Assembly (NCBI GenBank): GCA_036227345.1
Contig: CP109468.1
Coordinates: 4,154,001-4,218,000, forward strand
Reading direction: 5' to 3'
Length of the DNA stretch: 64,000 nt
Source: Streptomyces sp. NBC_01463
GTDB lineage: Bacteria; Actinomycetota; Actinomycetes; Streptomycetales; Streptomycetaceae
Every line of letters starts with the position of its first letter. Positions within the stretch are counted from its first letter, which is position 1. The position numbers were made by a program, and so were the translations under genes. A model generated the notes under the pieces. It worked only from the letters and a program-made list of their open reading frames with translations, did not search any database and was not told the origin of the DNA. Shown in pieces: positions 1,202-64,000 of this stretch.

Positions 1202-2338
<1,137 letters not shown>

Positions 2339-8221: not shown

Positions 8222-8626
8222 TCAGACGGCTCCGACGACCTTCCGGGGCGTGATCCGGACGACGACCCGGGGGTCGTCGGCACCGGAGGTGGGGTTGAAG
8301 TCGGCGTACTTCTTGCCGGTGTACTTCAGGGACAGCTCGTCGATGAGTTCCTGTCCGCCCTCGGTGGTGAGGGTGGCGGTGCCGCGGATCTCGGCGTACG
8401 TGTACGGGGCGTCGAAGGGCTGGACGACGACGGAGACGCGCGGGTCGCGGGCGAGGTTCTGTTCCTTGCGGCGGCCGGTGGTCGTGGAGATGAGGACGTC
8501 GTCGCCGTCCCGCTTCACCCAGACCGGGGACACCTGGGGGCTGCCGTCGGGCTGGACGGTGGCCACGGTGACGAAGACCGGGGTGTCGAGCAGCGCCTTG
8601 AGTTCGGGGGAGAGTGCGGCGGTCAT
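8222..8626 (-). CDS. PPOX-class F420-dependent oxidoreductase-type protein
   Basis: A 134-residue split beta-barrel protein of the pyridoxamine-phosphate oxidase-like class. Its pattern (VFVTVATVQPDGSPQVSPVWV, DVLISTTTGRRKEQNL, DPRVSVVV, EIRGTATL) matches the actinobacterial F420-dependent group. It is preceded by AGGAGG, and its ATG overlaps the stop of the fused permease gene (ATGA at 8623-8626), so translation is probably coupled to that transporter. The substrate is unknown. Coupling to a metal-box-flanked ABC system is unusual. Confidence 0.8.
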   Translation of the reverse strand: MTAALSPELKALLDTPVFVTVATVQPDGSPQVSPVWVKRDGDDVLISTTTGRRKEQNLARDPRVSVVVQPFDAPYTYAEIRGTATLTTEGGQELIDELSLKYTGKKYADFNPTSGADDPRVVVRITPRKVVGAV

Positions 8627-10518
8627 GGCGTACGTCCTCCTGAGCGGGTCGGTGATGCCTCTACCCCTACCCCAACCACGCCTCCCCCGCCCCGCTTCCC
8701 GCTTCCGGCGCCGCGTACCGCCGCCGCGGTGAGGACGGCCAGGGCGCCGAGGACGGCGAGGGCGGCCGCGGGGGCGAGGACGGACCAGGGGGCGCGTTCG
8801 GCGTAGGGGAGGTTCTCGGAGAGCATGCGCCCCCATTCGGGTGAGGGGGGTGCGGTGCCGAGGCCGAGGAAGCCGAGGGAGGCGAGGGCCAGGGCGATGG
8901 CGGGGACGCGCAGGACGGCGTGGCGGGCGATGGGCGGCAGGACGCCGGGCAGGAGGTGGCGGCGCAGCAGGTGGAGCGGTCCGGCGCCGAGTGCGCGGGC
9001 GGCGGCCAGGTGCGGGGCGGCGCGTTCCTGGGCGTGCAGGGCGCTGGTGTGGGCGGCGAGGGGCGCCCAGGCCACGGCGGTGACGGCGGCCGCGGCCCCC
9101 CAGGGACCGGGGCCCGCGACGCCGGCGACGACGAGGCCGGTGAGGATCGCGGGCAGCGCGTTGGCGGTCTCGGTGAGCGCTCCGGCGCGTACGGCTCCGA
9201 TGACGAGGCCGATGAGCAGGGTGGCGGCGGAGACGGCGACGGCGGTCAGGACGGTGCGGGCGGCGCCGTGGCCGAGGCGGGCGAGGATGTCGCGGCCCAG
9301 CGAGTCCGTGCCGAAGGGGTGGGCGGCGGAGGGTCCGGCGAGGCGGGCGGCGGCGTCGATGTGGAGCGGGTCGCGCAGGAGTCCGGCGGCGGTCACGGCG
9401 GCGAAGAGCGCGGCGAGGAGGAGTGCGCCGGCGATCAAGGACCGGCGTGCGCGGGCGGCCGGCGGGACGAGCGCGGGCAGGGCGTCCTCGTGGAGGGCGG
9501 GGCCGAGCAGCGCGCGGGTGGTGAGGCGGGCCGCGAGGCCGGCGGCGGTGCCCAGGACCAGCAGGATCAGGACGCAGGCCTGGAGGACGGGGAGGTCCTG
9601 GGCGAGGGCGGCGGCCAGCGCGGTGGAGCCGAGTCCGGGGACGGCGTAGAGGGTCTCGACGGCGACGGCTCCGCCGGTGAGCCCGACGACGACCATGCCG
9701 AGCTGGGGCAGCAGGCCGGGCAGGGTGCGGCGCAGGGCGTGGCGGGCGGTGCGGTGTCCGGGCAGGCCGGCCGCGGTGGCGGCGCGGGCCCACGGCTCGG
9801 CGAACGCGGCGGGCAGTGCGTCGTCCAGCAGCCGGCCGAGGAGTGCGCCCGCCGGGATACCCATGGCGAGGGCGGGCAGCACGGCCTGTGCGGGGGTGCC
9901 CCAGCCGAGGGCGGGGAGCCAGTCGAGGCGGACGGCGACGACCGCGGCGAGGACGGCGGCGATCAGGAACTCGGGGAGCGCGGCGAGGACGGCGGCGCCG
10001 GTGCCGGCCCCGGCGGTGACGATCCGGCTGCGCGCCCCGCGCCGCAGGGTGCGGGCGGCGAGCGCGGCGGCGGTCAGGAGGGCGACGGCGAGTGAGACGC
10101 CCATCAGGGTCAGGGACACCCCGAGGGCGGATATCGCGTCGGGGGCGACGGGCTGCCCGGAGACCCAGGAGGTGCCGAGGTCGCCGCGGAGGAGCCCGCC
10201 GAGCCAGCCGCCGAGTACGTGGAGCGGCCCGCCGTCGAGGCCGGTGTCGGCGCGGATGGCGTCGAGGGTCTCGGCGGTGGGCGGCCGGTCGGCGTACCGG
10301 GCGTGCAGGATCGTCAGTGCGGGATCGGTCCGGGTCAGCCGGGGCAGCAGCCCGATGACGGCGACGACCGCGAGGAGTGCGGCGAGCCGCCCGGCCAGTG
10401 CCGCGGCCGGCAGCGTCGGCCCGCGGCGGAGCGGCGTCCGGCGCGTGCGCGCGGCGGGAGTGCGTGCCGGGCGTCGCGGCGGGGCCGGCGTCTCCCGCCG
10501 CTGCACCGGGTGCTTCAC
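8623..10518 (-). CDS. ABC transporter permease, two Dpp/Nik-type permeases fused in one chain
   Basis: A 631-residue integral membrane protein. Residues 1-340 form a DppB/NikB-type permease (GDLGTSWVSGQPV, an EAA-type loop at about 241-270, ETLYAVPGLGSTAL). Residues 345-620 form a DppC/NikC-type permease (HPFGTDSLGRDILARLGHG, a second EAA loop at about 502-530, LGFLGLGTAPPSPEWGRML). Family members are normally two genes of about 300 residues each. The GTG at 10518 is 4 nt beyond the stop of the binding-protein gene. No ATPase gene is adjacent, so the ATP-binding subunits must come from elsewhere. Substrate could be a peptide, nickel or a metal-chelate; the flanking metal boxes favour the latter two. 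Confidence 0.85.
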   Translation of the reverse strand: MKHPVQRRETPAPPRRPARTPAARTRRTPLRRGPTLPAAALAGRLAALLAVVAVIGLLPRLTRTDPALTILHARYADRPPTAETLDAIRADTGLDGGPLHVLGGWLGGLLRGDLGTSWVSGQPVAPDAISALGVSLTLMGVSLAVALLTAAALAARTLRRGARSRIVTAGAGTGAAVLAALPEFLIAAVLAAVVAVRLDWLPALGWGTPAQAVLPALAMGIPAGALLGRLLDDALPAAFAEPWARAATAAGLPGHRTARHALRRTLPGLLPQLGMVVVGLTGGAVAVETLYAVPGLGSTALAAALAQDLPVLQACVLILLVLGTAAGLAARLTTRALLGPALHEDALPALVPPAARARRSLIAGALLLAALFAAVTAAGLLRDPLHIDAAARLAGPSAAHPFGTDSLGRDILARLGHGAARTVLTAVAVSAATLLIGLVIGAVRAGALTETANALPAILTGLVVAGVAGPGPWGAAAAVTAVAWAPLAAHTSALHAQERAAPHLAAARALGAGPLHLLRRHLLPGVLPPIARHAVLRVPAIALALASLGFLGLGTAPPSPEWGRMLSENLPYAERAPWSVLAPAAALAVLGALAVLTAAAVRGAGSGKRGGGGVVGVGVEASPTRSGGRTP

Positions 10519-10522
10519 CCGG

Positions 10523-12049
10523 TCACCCGACGCGGGTGTCTGCGGTGATGAGGGTGCGCTCCATCGGGTCGAGCGAGACGCCGTGGACGCGGCTGTCGTC
10601 GTAGCCCTGGACGAAGCGTTCGTGGAGGAGCGGTACGAGGGCGTCGGTGCCGAGTACGTCTGCCTCGGCGGCCGCGGCGGCGGCGTGGCGGGCGTCGGTC
10701 CCGGCGGTGCCCGCGGCCTTGTCCACGGCGGCGTCGACGCGCTCGTCGCAGAGCTGGGAGATGTTGAAGCTGCCGTCGCAGGTGAAGTCGGAGGCGAGGT
10801 AGGAGACCGGGTCGGCGGTGTCCAGGAGGGTGTTGCGGGCCTGGATGAAGGCGTCGTACTTCCCGGCGAGGGCGTCGGCCTCCAGCTGGGCGTAGTCGCG
10901 GACGACCTGCCTGACGGTGAAGCCGCGCCCGGTGAGCTGCTGCTGGACGACGGTGGCGACCTCGGGGAGCTCGGGCCGGTTGGTGTACGTCGCGAGGACG
11001 ATCTCCTTCGTCTTCGCCACCTGCGCCCGGTCCGCGGCCGCCGCCCGGCCGACGGGGGCCTTGCGGGCGGCGGCCGCCCACGGGACACCGGGGCCGAGCA
11101 GGCCCTGCGCGGTGTCGGCGCGGCCTTCGTGGACGGCCTTGACGAGGGCCTCGGAGTCGATGGCCGAACGGGCGGCGGCGCGCATCGCCGGGTCGGCGAA
11201 GACACCGTGCCGGGTGTTGAGGGAGAGGCCGTTGGTGCGGGCGGAGGGGAATGCGTGGACGAGCCCGTCACCGAGGAGGGAGGCCTGGGAGATGGGTACG
11301 TACTCGGCGACGTCGACGGCGCCCGTGCGCAGGGCGTTGGCACGGGCGGTGCCGTCGGCGACGAACGTGACGTCGGCGCCGGGGGACTCGGCCCTGCCGC
11401 CCCAGTAGGTGTCGTTGCGCTCCAGCGTGGCGCTGACGGCGCCCTTGACCGCGGCGAGGGTGAAGGGTCCGGTGGCGTGCCCGGCCGGGTTCACCTTGCC
11501 GTCGCGGTAGGCGGCGGCGGACAGGATGGTGAGGGAGGGGTTGGCCAGGCGCTGGGGCAGCAGCGGGTCGGCCTCGTCGGTGACGATCCGTACGGCGCCG
11601 GCACCCGCCGCGCTCGCGGTGATACCGGTGTCGGACAGGACGCGGGGCTTGGGCGACGCCTTCTCGGCGGCGTTCAGCGACCGGACGACGGCGGCCGGGT
11701 CGACCTTCGTGCCGTCCTGGAAGACCGCATCGCGCAGGGTGAAGGTCCACTCCTTGGCGCTGTCCCGCTTCCAGGAGGAGGCGAGTGCGGGCTCGGCCGC
11801 GCCGTCGCGGCCGAGGCCGGTGAGGCCCTCGATGACCGCGAGGCGGCTGAGGGTGACGGCGTCGTCGCCGTAGGGGGACATCGCCTGGGCGGGCGGGAAG
11901 GCCATGACGACCCGGAGGCGTTTCCCGTCGTCCGCCGCGCCATCGGTGCCGGACGCGCCGCCGGAGCAGGCGGTGGCGAGCGGGACGAGGAGGGCGGTCG
12001 CGGACAGGGTCAGCGGCAGCGCGGAGCGACGGCGTCGGGGCGTGGGCAT
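10523..12049 (-). CDS. ABC transporter solute-binding lipoprotein, peptide/nickel family (SBP_bac_5)
   Basis: A 508-residue extracellular lipoprotein. A basic N-terminus and hydrophobic stretch end in the lipobox LATAC with Cys28 as the lipidated residue. Family features include YGDDAVTLSRLAVIEGL, the WTFTLRDAVFQDGTKVDPAAVV strand-turn region and TGPFTLAAVK. The gene heads an operon with the fused permease (4-nt gap) and the PPOX gene. A Zur-type 15-bp box lies 16-30 nt before the start, across the spacer of a promoter with -10 TATAAG (12058-12063). Ligand class (peptide, nickel, opine-type metallophore) is not readable from sequence. Confidence 0.85.
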   Translation of the reverse strand: MPTPRRRRSALPLTLSATALLVPLATACSGGASGTDGAADDGKRLRVVMAFPPAQAMSPYGDDAVTLSRLAVIEGLTGLGRDGAAEPALASSWKRDSAKEWTFTLRDAVFQDGTKVDPAAVVRSLNAAEKASPKPRVLSDTGITASAAGAGAVRIVTDEADPLLPQRLANPSLTILSAAAYRDGKVNPAGHATGPFTLAAVKGAVSATLERNDTYWGGRAESPGADVTFVADGTARANALRTGAVDVAEYVPISQASLLGDGLVHAFPSARTNGLSLNTRHGVFADPAMRAAARSAIDSEALVKAVHEGRADTAQGLLGPGVPWAAAARKAPVGRAAAADRAQVAKTKEIVLATYTNRPELPEVATVVQQQLTGRGFTVRQVVRDYAQLEADALAGKYDAFIQARNTLLDTADPVSYLASDFTCDGSFNISQLCDERVDAAVDKAAGTAGTDARHAAAAAAEADVLGTDALVPLLHERFVQGYDDSRVHGVSLDPMERTLITADTRVG

Positions 12050-12064
12050 GGCAACGACCTTATA

Positions 12065-12079
12065 TGAAAATGATTGTCA
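12065..12079 (-). promoter_or_regulatory. Zur-type metalloregulator box
   Basis: TGAAAAT-G-ATTGTCA is a 7-1-7 inverted repeat with one mismatch, matching the streptomycete Zur consensus TGaaAatgatTttCA as I recall it. It sits directly upstream of the -10 of the ABC lipoprotein gene and overlaps the stop codon of the acetyltransferase gene. Zur (zinc) is favoured over iron regulators, whose streptomycete boxes look different. Confidence 0.6.
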
Positions 12080-12703
12080 TTTAACGGGCGGGGTGACCGT
12101 GGCGCCCGCGCCGACGGCGGCGCCCTCGCGCGGCCCGGCCCCCGGGAACGGCAGCTCGAAGTGGACGATGCCCTGGCCGCCGCCCGGCAGTGCGCGCTCG
12201 TCGCACACCTCCGTCGCCAGCGACCGCCAGAACGGCTCGGCGCCCGGCACGGCGGGATCGGTGTGCAGGTAGACCGCCTCGTACCCGCCGGCGTCCGCCA
12301 CGAAGGCGCACAGCTCGCGCACCATCCGGCGCGCGAGCCCGCGCCTGCGGTGCTCCGGCCTGACGTAGATCCGGCAGAGCTGGGCGGTGGTGCCGGACGG
12401 GAAGCGGTCGGCGACCCACTGCGGATTGGGCGGCGCCTGGGGGCCCCGGTCGCGCACGGCACCCGTGGCGACGATCTCGCCCGCGTGCTCGGCCACCAGC
12501 AGCGTGCAGCGCCCGGGGCTCAGGTAGGCGGCCCCGGGATCGATGATGTCGGCGTGCCAGCGCGGTACGTAACCGGACCGCAGGTCGCGGTAGACGGTGT
12601 CGAGCATGACGGCCCGGGCCCCGCCGACGTCCTGCGGACCGGCGGTGCGCAGGACGTACCCGTCGGCGTCGGCCCCTGCCGGAGCGATCGTCGTCGTGCT
12701 CAT
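12077..12703 (-). CDS. GNAT family N-acetyltransferase
   Basis: A 208-residue cytosolic acetyl-CoA-dependent acetyltransferase. The GNAT core is visible as ARAVMLDTVYRDL, LLVAEHAGEIVATGAV, and the pyrophosphate-binding motif A CRIYVRPEHRRRGLARRMV; the C-terminal strands (AVYLHTDPAVPGAEPFW) complete the fold. It precedes the ABC lipoprotein gene on the same strand. Its promoter region carries a Nur-box-like element. The substrate is unknown; the context could suggest modification of a chelator or a resistance role. Confidence 0.8.
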   Translation of the reverse strand: MSTTTIAPAGADADGYVLRTAGPQDVGGARAVMLDTVYRDLRSGYVPRWHADIIDPGAAYLSPGRCTLLVAEHAGEIVATGAVRDRGPQAPPNPQWVADRFPSGTTAQLCRIYVRPEHRRRGLARRMVRELCAFVADAGGYEAVYLHTDPAVPGAEPFWRSLATEVCDERALPGGGQGIVHFELPFPGAGPREGAAVGAGATVTPPVK

Positions 12704-12754
12704 CCCGGAGCTTCACCGTCCCTTGCGCGCCGCATCATTGCCGTATCAGCGTAC

Positions 12755-12771
12755 GTGCAAGTGATGTGCAA
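12755..12771 (-). promoter_or_regulatory. Nur-box-like element over the acetyltransferase promoter
   Basis: On the minus strand the sequence is TTGCAC-ATCAC-TTGCAC, close to the published Nur-box form tTGCaa-N5-ttGCAA. The first TTGCAC also fits a -35 hexamer, with TGATAC 17 nt further as the -10. Bound Nur would cover the -35 and spacer. The window itself encodes Nur near its right end. Confidence 0.5.
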
Positions 12772-62978: not shown

Positions 62979-63440
62979 CTAGGGCGCGGTACCGGGTGTC
63001 GCCTCCTGGGCGGCCGCGGCCGCCTTCGCCGTGCAGTCCGCACAGCGGCCGAAGATCGCGAAGTGCTTCATGTCCGTCTCGAAACCGAACGTGCCCCGAA
63101 GCTTCTCGGTGAACTCGGCGACGACGTCGACATCGGCCTCGATGACGTTCGTGCAGTCCCGGCAGACCAGATGGATGTGGTGATGGCGGTCGGCCAGGTG
63201 GTACGTCGGGGCGCCGTGGCCCAGATGGGCGTGGCTGACCAGATCCAGCTCCTCCAGGAGCTCCAGGGTCCGGTACACGGTGGAGATGTTCACGCCGGAC
63301 GCGGTCCGCCGCACCTCCGACAGGATGTCGTCGGGCGTCGCGTGTTCCAGCGTGTCGACGGCTTCCAGGACAAGCTGCCGCTGCGGCGTCAGCCGGTAGC
63401 CGCGCTGCCGAAGATCGGTCTTCCAGTCGGTGCTCACCAC
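62979..63440 (-). CDS. nur: Nur, nickel-responsive Fur-family regulator
   Basis: A 153-residue regulator of nickel uptake and superoxide dismutase genes. It carries all Nur metal ligands at their known positions: Ni site His70, His72 and His126, and M site His33, His86, His88 and His90; CRDC and CADC pairs fit the structural zinc site region. The DNA-binding domain is LRQRGYRLTPQRQLVLEAVD, NISTVYRTLELL. GTG 63440 (MVSTDWK) lies 7 nt after TACACT, as a leaderless transcript, and matches the start of characterised Nur. Confidence 0.95.
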   Translation of the reverse strand: MVSTDWKTDLRQRGYRLTPQRQLVLEAVDTLEHATPDDILSEVRRTASGVNISTVYRTLELLEELDLVSHAHLGHGAPTYHLADRHHHIHLVCRDCTNVIEADVDVVAEFTEKLRGTFGFETDMKHFAIFGRCADCTAKAAAAAQEATPGTAP

Positions 63441-63525
63441 AGGCTCCAGTGTAGGTCCGGGTGACCGCCCGGCCCGGGCTGTCCGCAGGAACGGCCGCGC
63501 GGGCGGGCGGAACGGGCCGCGCCGG

Positions 63526-64000
63526 CTACTTGAAGAACGCGATGCCGTCGTCCGGCAGGTCGTCACCGAGGCTCTTCGCCATCGCCTCGACCTCTTCCGG
63601 GGTGACGACCTTCTTCAGGTGCGCCGACATGTACGGCCGCAGCTCGACCTCGGGGGTGGCCTTCTCGCCGACCCACATGAGGTCGCTCTTCACATAGCCG
63701 TAGAGCCGCTTGCCACCGCTGTACGGGCCGGAGGCCGCGGTCCGGGCCACCGCGTCGGTGACCAGGTCGATCTGCGGCTTCTGGTCGGCCAGCTCGCCGT
63801 ACCAGATCTCGATGACGCCCTGGTCGCGGGCCATGACGACCTCGACCTTGCGGTCCTTGTCGATGCGCCAGTAGCCGGACTCGGACTCCAGCGCGCTGAC
63901 CTTGTTCCCCTCGGCGTCGAGGACCCAGGTGTGCGAGACGTACTCCAGGAAGTCCCGGCCGTCGTGGCTGAAGGAGACCTCCTGGCCGAAGTTGCACTTC
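63526..64000 (-). CDS. Nitrobindin-like FABP-family protein, 5' truncated by the window
   Basis: The frame is open to the right edge, so the N-terminus is missing; an internal Met at 63834 is not the start. The visible 157 residues form the rest of a ten-stranded beta-barrel (CNFGQEVSFSHDGRDFLEY, VIEIWYGELADQKPQIDL, KRLYGYVKSDLMWVGEKA). Nitrobindins bind haem through a C-terminal His; MSAHLKKVVTPEEVEAM contains a candidate His. Downstream of it on the same strand is nur, the gene order seen in other streptomycetes. Confidence 0.88.
   Translation of the reverse strand, partial: KCNFGQEVSFSHDGRDFLEYVSHTWVLDAEGNKVSALESESGYWRIDKDRKVEVVMARDQGVIEIWYGELADQKPQIDLVTDAVARTAASGPYSGGKRLYGYVKSDLMWVGEKATPEVELRPYMSAHLKKVVTPEEVEAMAKSLGDDLPDDGIAFFK

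What the first reader, a model, noticed from the sequence alone, without database searches (positions are those of the whole stretch)
8222..12771. Metal-box-controlled ABC system with fused permeases and no ATPase
A peptide/nickel-family binding lipoprotein, a single-chain DppB-DppC permease fusion, an overlapping PPOX enzyme and a GNAT enzyme form a compact island on one strand. A Zur-type box lies over the lipoprotein promoter and a Nur-box-like site over the GNAT promoter. The nearest ideas are nickel (Nik) or opine-metallophore (Cnt) importers, but the fusion, missing ATPases and attached F420-type enzyme do not fit either.
Basis: partly seen in the sequence, partly recalled or inferred. 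Interest (0 to 1): 0.8.

Follow-up and report, generated by a model that had tools for sequence, protein, structure and literature searches.

The report
Zinc-starvation importer without its motor
A Streptomyces genome carries an uptake system that looks controlled by the zinc repressor, whose membrane channel is one fused protein and whose energy-supplying ATPase genes are missing; the same arrangement is found in many relatives, so the channel most likely borrows a motor from another transporter.

Summary
In detail: a GNAT enzyme, a NikA-like lipoprotein (SBP) and a fused NikB-NikC-type permease sit between ispF and cysS, with a Zur box before the SBP and no ATPase. Three corrections. (1) PPOX is not part of the system: it lies between ispF and cysS in 7 of 22 Streptomyces loci without the island. 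It touches the permease because an MdtH-like MFS gene, present in 13 of 16 same-site loci that cover the spot, was deleted; the permease now ends in the lost protein's tail. (2) Fusion and missing ATPases are old: 0 of 48 type A/B loci reaching 4 kb past the SBP start hold an ATPase motif pair, both coupling loops are kept, and sister loci have SBP, fused permease and two ATPases. (3) The Zur box is one of two exact matches in the genome and conserved (16 of 18 type A, 18 of 18 type C), though not in distant same-site loci. The Nur-like box is less certain. Best reading: Zur-repressed import of chelated zinc, powered by an ATPase from elsewhere; 0 of 39 genomes examined with only ATPase-less loci hold a close copy of the cognate ATPase.

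The parts
12077..12703 (-). GNAT acetyltransferase-like protein, 208 aa; first gene of the unit
   Evidence: PF00583 56.4 bits; upstream of SBP in types A and B
12065..12079 (.). Zur box TGAAAATGATTGTCA, 15 bp before the SBP start and overlapping the GNAT stop codon
   Evidence: exact match to tGaNNatSatNNtCa, one of 2 places in the genome; conservation
12756..12770 (.). TGCA-N7-TGCA palindrome upstream of GNAT (Nur-box-like geometry)
   Evidence: upstream of or at the start of GNAT in 13 of 18 type A and 22 of 28 type B loci, 0 of 18 type C
10523..12049 (-). substrate-binding lipoprotein (SBP_bac_5, NikA-like), 508 aa, lipobox Cys28
8623..10518 (-). single-chain NikB/DppB-NikC/DppC permease fusion, 631 aa
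   Evidence: AlphaFold model pLDDT 78.8, best matches are Dpp and Opp permease chains of both kinds; EAA coupling loops starting near residues 239 and 501
8623..8703 (-). deletion scar: permease tail (about residues 606-631) like the C-terminus of the lost MFS protein
   Evidence: GVGVEASPTRSGGRTP* here against GVGVETSPTRSGGRTP* at the MFS end of sister locus L109; residues 606-631 below pLDDT 50
8222..8626 (-). PPOX/F420-class oxidoreductase (TIGR03618), neighbour and not part of the system
   Evidence: same place in 7 of 22 Streptomyces loci without the island
62979..63566 (-). Nur orthologue in the same window (candidate regulator, 50 kb away)
   Evidence: best PDB match 3eyy at 2.5e-82; 3EYY is named S. 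coelicolor Nur in PMC7055735 (passage)

Best explanation
It is a Zur-repressed importer for chelated zinc (a zinc complex with a metallophore, amino acid or peptide). When zinc is low, Zur leaves the box in front of the lipoprotein gene and SBP and permease are made. The lipoprotein binds the metal complex outside the membrane and hands it to the single-chain permease. The two ATPases (NikD/NikE-like) come from another Dpp/Opp/Nik operon of the same cell, as FhuC powers ATPase-less iron-compound importers in S. aureus and MsiK powers sugar importers in Streptomyces. In most same-site relatives an MdtH-like MFS protein, which may export the ligand, completes the unit; this strain has lost it. 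The GNAT protein is of unknown role, perhaps modifying the ligand. Shown by sequence: gene content, fusion, Zur box and its conservation, retained coupling loops, spread of the ATPase-less state, absence of a close cognate ATPase, loss of the MFS gene. Inferred: repression by Zur in vivo, zinc complex as substrate, ATPase in trans, roles of MFS and GNAT.
For: Zur box exact and one of two in the genome, conserved at one mismatch or less in 16 of 18 type A, 18 of 18 type C and 10 of 28 type B loci (21 of 28 type B at two mismatches); 51 of 56 such sites in 1.19 Mb of fetched loci lie in the 1.6 kb windows at the SBP. In 80 named loci: 8 of 14 type A, 13 of 15 type C, 7 of 29 type B, 3 of 22 others (some are the same genomes). 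The genome has a Zur-like protein (best PDB match 3mwm, 1.8e-75; 3mwm as S. coelicolor Zur is recalled) beside genes that by eye look like znuB and znuC. One relative, L042, has its SBP-permease pair beside AztA and AztB, both over their cut-offs. In Pectobacterium L237 the unit ATPase-ATPase-MFS-SBP-fused permease has an AztD-like gene two genes on (120.8 bits, cut-off 400). SBP fold closest to S. aureus NikA, one structure with a Ni-His-chelator complex. Coupling-loop residues E241, W243, G251 and G511 invariant in 32 of 32 permeases aligned and loops kept in ATPase-less types. dN/dS of permease 0.24-0.33, SBP 0.38-0.49 in four pairs. Precedents: Zur-regulated cluster C importer of unknown substrate in Paracoccus (PMC5387054, passages); FhuC (PMC10147376, passages); MsiK (PMC6167110, passages).
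Against: No ATPase partner was identified: the one DppF-like gene that by eye looked unlinked to a permease is found at E 1e-95 in 4 of 16 type A genomes (this one included) and in 1 of 8 genomes without the family. Zinc as substrate rests on regulation and neighbourhood only; the nearest folds bind nickel complexes or peptides. No metallophore synthase lies in the island. The Zur box is missing at one mismatch in L121 and L159, in 6 of 14 named type A loci including 4 of 4 at 63-65% SBP identity, in 18 of 28 type B loci and in all 7 SBP-permease pairs without GNAT of one clade, L042 among them. The deep branch of the ATPase-less clade has modest support (83/61). Azt genes were found beside only one of those 7 loci. 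The S. coelicolor row of a published Zur regulon table names no such importer (PMC6103462, passage), though I did not test whether S. coelicolor has the island; the passages seen of a Pectobacterium zur-mutant study name only znuABC among metal transporters (PMC10298282).
Confidence: 0.55

Rival explanations
1. A nickel (or cobalt) complex importer under double control: Nur senses nickel through the TGCA box, Zur adds zinc control. It works as a NikABC importer with ATPases in trans.
For: Nearest NCBIfam models are nickel SBP and permeases (far below their cut-offs), nearest fold S. aureus NikA; Nur-box geometry conserved in types A and B; Nur orthologue in this window.
Against: The TGCA box goes with the GNAT gene and is absent from 18 of 18 type C loci, while the Zur box is in 18 of 18. 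13 of 13 type A boxes lack the last A of the Nur consensus. In type B the palindrome spans the GNAT start and contains a -10-like TATGAT, so it may be a promoter or another operator (sequences; my reading).
Confidence: 0.2
2. A decaying remnant: with no ATPases of its own and now without the MFS, the island in this strain no longer transports anything.
For: MFS deleted here and reduced to fragments in L112; no MFS hit in L121; permease tail is a scar.
Against: The ATPase-less state is shared by 62 of 81 loci, so it is not decay of this strain. All frames open; dN/dS below 1 (the four partners all still have MFS, so decay since the deletion is not excluded). Zur box exact, coupling loops kept.
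Confidence: 0.15
3. Not a pump at all: SBP and permease act as a receptor or ATP-independent channel, with the MFS protein doing the transport.
For: MFS stands where the ATPases stand in type C; no close cognate ATPase in 39 of 39 genomes examined that hold only ATPase-less loci.
Against: Both EAA loops, whose known use is to dock ATPases, are kept; MFS can be lost (window, L112, L121) while SBP and permease stay.
Confidence: 0.07

Closest known systems
NikABCDE-type nickel importers (cluster C ABC importers)
   Same: SBP_bac_5 lipoprotein, NikB- and NikC-like halves, a metal-regulator box
   Different: permeases fused; no ATPases; scores far below NCBIfam cut-offs; Zur box rather than a clear Nur site in front of the SBP
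Cnt/staphylopine opine-metallophore systems
   Same: Opp-type importer plus MFS protein, as in the MFS-bearing relatives (PMC7438024 passages)
   Different: no synthase genes in the island; fused permease; no ATPase; SBP 45 bits against a CntA cut-off of 800
Paracoccus denitrificans Pden1341-1344, a Zur-regulated cluster C importer
   Same: cluster C importer directly under Zur, substrate unknown (PMC5387054 passages)
   Different: in an operon with a COG0523 gene; sequence relation was not tested here
ATPase-less metal-complex importers of S. aureus (HtsABC, SirABC, IsdEF with FhuC) and MsiK-powered sugar importers of Streptomyces
   Same: SBP and permease without own ATPase, powered by one from elsewhere (PMC10147376, PMC6167110 passages)
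   Different: other importer classes with one kind of ATPase; here two different NikD/NikE-like ATPases would be needed
Type C relatives in Streptomyces (this work)
   Same: same SBP family and fused permease, Zur box
   Different: carry their own ATPD and ATPF genes, no GNAT

Membership tests
Zur regulon (Streptomyces) | 15-bp tGaNNatSatNNtCa box at the promoter | tested here: met
Zur regulon (Streptomyces) | Zur orthologue in the genome | tested here: met
   L252, best PDB match 3mwm 1.8e-75
Zur regulon (Streptomyces) | zinc- and Zur-dependent transcription or binding | not testable with these tools
   needs experiment
Nur regulon | box tTGCaa-N5-ttGCAA | tested here: inconclusive
   spacing and TGC...GCA kept; last A missing in 13 of 13 type A boxes, present in 15 of 22 type B boxes
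NikABCDE nickel importer | NCBIfam equivalog score for NikA/NikB/NikC | tested here: not met
   81.2 of 393, 134.3 of 447, 134.3 of 358 bits
NikABCDE nickel importer | NikD and NikE ATPases in the operon | tested here: not met
   no ATPase in the island
Cnt opine-metallophore system | CntA/CntC family score | tested here: not met
   45 of 800 and 79.1 of 440 bits
Cnt opine-metallophore system | linked opine dehydrogenase / nicotianamine synthase-like genes | tested here: inconclusive
   the four genes of the island are other families; the rest of the genome was not searched for them
Cluster C (SBP_bac_5 / Dpp-Opp-Nik) ABC importer | SBP_bac_5 plus two BPD_transp_1 domains | tested here: met
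Cluster C (SBP_bac_5 / Dpp-Opp-Nik) ABC importer | own pair of ATPases | tested here: not met

The most novel reading that the evidence does not exclude
A branch of cluster C importers spread through Streptomyces gave up its ATPase genes, probably once, and now runs either on a common housekeeping NikD/NikE-like ATPase pair (a MsiK or FhuC for metal-complex importers of the peptide/nickel class) or, boldest, without ATP as a zinc-complex receptor or channel.
Probability: 0.4. Interest if true: 0.7.

Novelty: new variant of a known kind. Interest (0 to 1): 0.5.

Why it matters
If true, zinc-starved Streptomyces have an uptake route for chelated zinc that the S. coelicolor row of the Zur regulon table seen here does not name, and cluster C importers, which need two different ATPases, can share them as sugar and iron-complex importers do. 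The ATPase-bearing and ATPase-less sister types in one genus make the question testable: remove ATPase pairs one at a time and see which ATPase-less system stops. The locus also warns that a tight gene overlap (permease-PPOX) can be a deletion scar and not a sign of shared function.

Tried and rejected
PPOX as a component: rejected. It sits between ispF and cysS in 7 of 22 Streptomyces loci without the island and has no hit in 4 island loci that reach cysS (L040, L114, L117, L118).

Recent loss of ATPases in this strain: rejected, see tree and census. Supply by type C ATPases in trans: rejected for this genome and for 39 of 39 genomes examined that, as far as examined, hold only ATPase-less loci; best hits 57% identity or less, against 67-100% in 11 genomes with type C loci in the same two searches (for G022, G001 and G026 type C is read from neighbouring coordinates).

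An unlinked DppF-like ATPase (G000 C1:645036-645893) as common partner: rejected, found at E 1e-95 in 4 of 16 type A genomes (this one included), 3 of 4 type B genomes and 1 of 8 non-carriers. 'Unlinked' rests on comparing the about 30 strongest hits by eye, which scored 150 of 195 candidates.

MsiK-like ATPase 6 kb away (window 1202-2338) as partner: not tested; judged unlikely because it is of the MalK/UgpC class, not NikD/NikE.

Led nowhere: literature on this layout. Searches listed no paper whose title or abstract start names a Streptomyces Zur-controlled importer with a fused cluster C permease; only listings and found passages of some papers were seen, and supplementary tables (such as the 172 Zur ChIP sites of PMC5472717) could not be read. 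Structure search names folds but not the ligand, and its output does not say which half of the permease matched.

Limits of my counts: loci were chosen from search hits, not at random; types were set by simple rules on tblastn hits; ATPase hits under 45% identity were left out of the layouts. To cover that gap I scanned six frames from 3 kb before to 6 kb after the SBP start for a Walker A plus signature motif: none in 51 type A, B and incomplete B loci, of which L058, L110 and L111 end before 4 kb; both ATPases in 17 of 18 type C loci (not L164); among 12 others only in L042 (the Azt ATPase) and the unfused outgroup L055, which therefore has an ATPase although the layout rule missed it. The 12 others are 7 SBP-permease pairs (L129 has a divergent MFS gene upstream), 3 SBP alone, L148 and L055. 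L110 and L111 end before the MFS position and were not counted for MFS. Named loci partly repeat genomes of the sample.
Full report

Relatives fall into types. SBP homologues at E 1e-100 occur in 68 of 150 genomes of the genus sampled; 17 of these, this genome included, have one at 67% identity or more. I fetched 80 loci and sorted them with the window, 81 in all. Type A (18; ispF seen beside 17, cysS alone beside L121): GNAT-SBP-permease-MFS, no ATPase. Type B (28, plus 5 incomplete): GNAT-SBP-permease-MFS elsewhere, SBP about 55% identical, no ATPase. Type C (18): SBP-permease-ATPase-ATPase, no GNAT; two of them (L054, L164) have MFS after the ATPases. Other (12): 7 SBP-permease pairs, 3 SBP alone, L148, and L055, an unfused relative from another family that carries an ATPase. 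A motif scan confirms this: 0 of 51 type A, B and incomplete B loci show an ATPase motif pair (3 of them end before 4 kb), 17 of 18 type C show two. A tree of 81 SBPs puts all type C in one clade (99/98) and the ATPase-less rows in another (62 rows, 83/61), so one loss of the ATPases explains most of the pattern; the root is drawn at the midpoint and the outgroup branch is long. The same SBP family occurs in Saccharothrix, Lentzea, Micromonospora, Pectobacterium and Rahnella; in Pectobacterium L237 the order is ATPase-ATPase-MFS-SBP-fused permease, so fused permease, two ATPases and MFS together may be the older set.

The PPOX link is a scar. PPOX lies between ispF and cysS in 7 of 22 Streptomyces loci without the island. 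Of 16 type A loci that cover the spot, 13 have an MFS gene after the permease; the exceptions are the window, L112 and L121. In the sister locus L109 (SBP 87%) the MFS frame ends GVGVETSPTRSGGRTP and its stop overlaps the PPOX start; in the window the permease ends GVGVEASPTRSGGRTP with the same overlap. L112 holds short MFS remnants. The MFS gene was thus removed in the window's line, and the permease now runs on into the MFS tail, which the model leaves disordered.

The Zur box. The exact motif occurs at two places in the genome, one of them this box. With at most one mismatch it lies in the 1.6 kb window at the SBP in 16 of 18 type A, 18 of 18 type C, 10 of 28 type B, 3 of 5 incomplete B and 2 of 12 other loci; at two mismatches in 21 of 28 type B. 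Of 56 such sites in 1.19 Mb, 51 lie in those windows. In types A and C it stands before SBP; in the 10 type B loci it stands before GNAT in 7 and between GNAT and SBP in 5, two having both. In 80 named loci it is found in 8 of 14 type A (0 of 4 with SBP at 63-65% identity), 13 of 15 type C, 7 of 29 type B and 3 of 22 others. So it is firm near this strain and in type C, and patchy elsewhere. A Zur-like protein is encoded beside genes that look like znuBC.

The second box. TGCA-N7-TGCA lies upstream of or at the start of GNAT in 13 of 18 type A, 22 of 28 type B and 2 of 5 incomplete B loci; it is present in 4 of 12 others and 0 of 18 type C; in named loci 8 of 14 type A, 19 of 29 type B, 0 of 15 type C, 0 of 22 others. 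The spacing is that of the Nur consensus, and a Nur orthologue is encoded in this window at 62979-63566. Against Nur: the genome has 36 such palindromes, fewer than the backward control (63); type A boxes miss the last A; in type B the element spans the GNAT start and holds a -10-like TATGAT (my reading). I leave the regulator open.

Where is the motor. Coupling-loop residues are invariant in 32 permeases aligned and the loops are kept in types A and B. A cognate ATPF (67-100% identity) was found in 11 genomes with type C loci and in 0 of 39 genomes that, as far as examined, have only ATPase-less loci (18 type A, 21 type B or incomplete B; best 57%). This genome has many Dpp/Opp/Nik ATPases at 57% or less; the strongest hits lie beside their own permeases when compared by eye. 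The one that looked unlinked is not conserved with the island. The likely answer is an ATPase shared with another operon, for which FhuC and MsiK are precedents in other importer classes.

What it imports. Zinc is favoured by the Zur box, by AztA and AztB beside the SBP-permease pair in L042 (both over their cut-offs; 1 of 7 such loci) and by an AztD-like gene two genes from the Pectobacterium unit (120.8 bits, below the cut-off of 400). The SBP class points to a complexed metal or peptide rather than a bare ion (established knowledge of the family), and the MdtH-like MFS partner recalls the importer-exporter pairing of opine metallophore clusters (PMC7438024 passages). The substrate itself is not shown. 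Against: the S. coelicolor row of a Zur regulon table and the passages seen of a Pectobacterium zur-mutant study do not name such an importer.

State of the genes. Window against L109, L113, L039 and L115: permease dN/dS 0.24-0.33, SBP 0.38-0.49, GNAT 0.25-0.44, PPOX 0.23-0.33, CysS 0.07-0.17: under purifying selection, looser than CysS.

Verdict. Observation confirmed; interpretation partly right. A new variant of a known kind: a Zur-box-bearing, fused-permease, ATPase-less cluster C importer, old and widespread in Streptomyces, with its motor still to be found.

Noticed in passing
window 1202-2338 (+): MalK/UgpC-class ATPase (NF008653 462 bits, over cut-off) that by recall of its sequence and place is MsiK, the shared sugar ATPase, 6 kb from the ATPase-less island.
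   Followed up: partly
G000:C1:4516465-4516479: The only other exact Zur-motif site of the genome (TGAGGATGATCTTCA).
   Followed up: no
L171 (G000:C1:496000-511000): A second Nik-type unit in the same genome, with SBP, permease and fused ATPase near another MdtH-like MFS gene.
   Followed up: partly
L044, L045, L135: Type B-like SBP genes with Zur-like (one or two mismatches) and TGCA boxes in front but no permease hit beside them.
   Followed up: no
L159 (G083:C10): Island at the type A site with GNAT 81% but SBP only 57% identical: a deep branch or exchanged genes.
   Followed up: no
window 10523-12049, residues Cys424 and Cys434: A cysteine pair: Cys in 27 of 43 SBPs at each of the two columns, seen in the type A and B rows and not in the type C rows: possible disulphide or metal site.
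   Followed up: no
L116, L039 upstream of GNAT: A second, inverted copy of the TGCA element about 28 bp downstream of the first (complete in L116, nearly so in L039), suggesting two operators.
   Followed up: no
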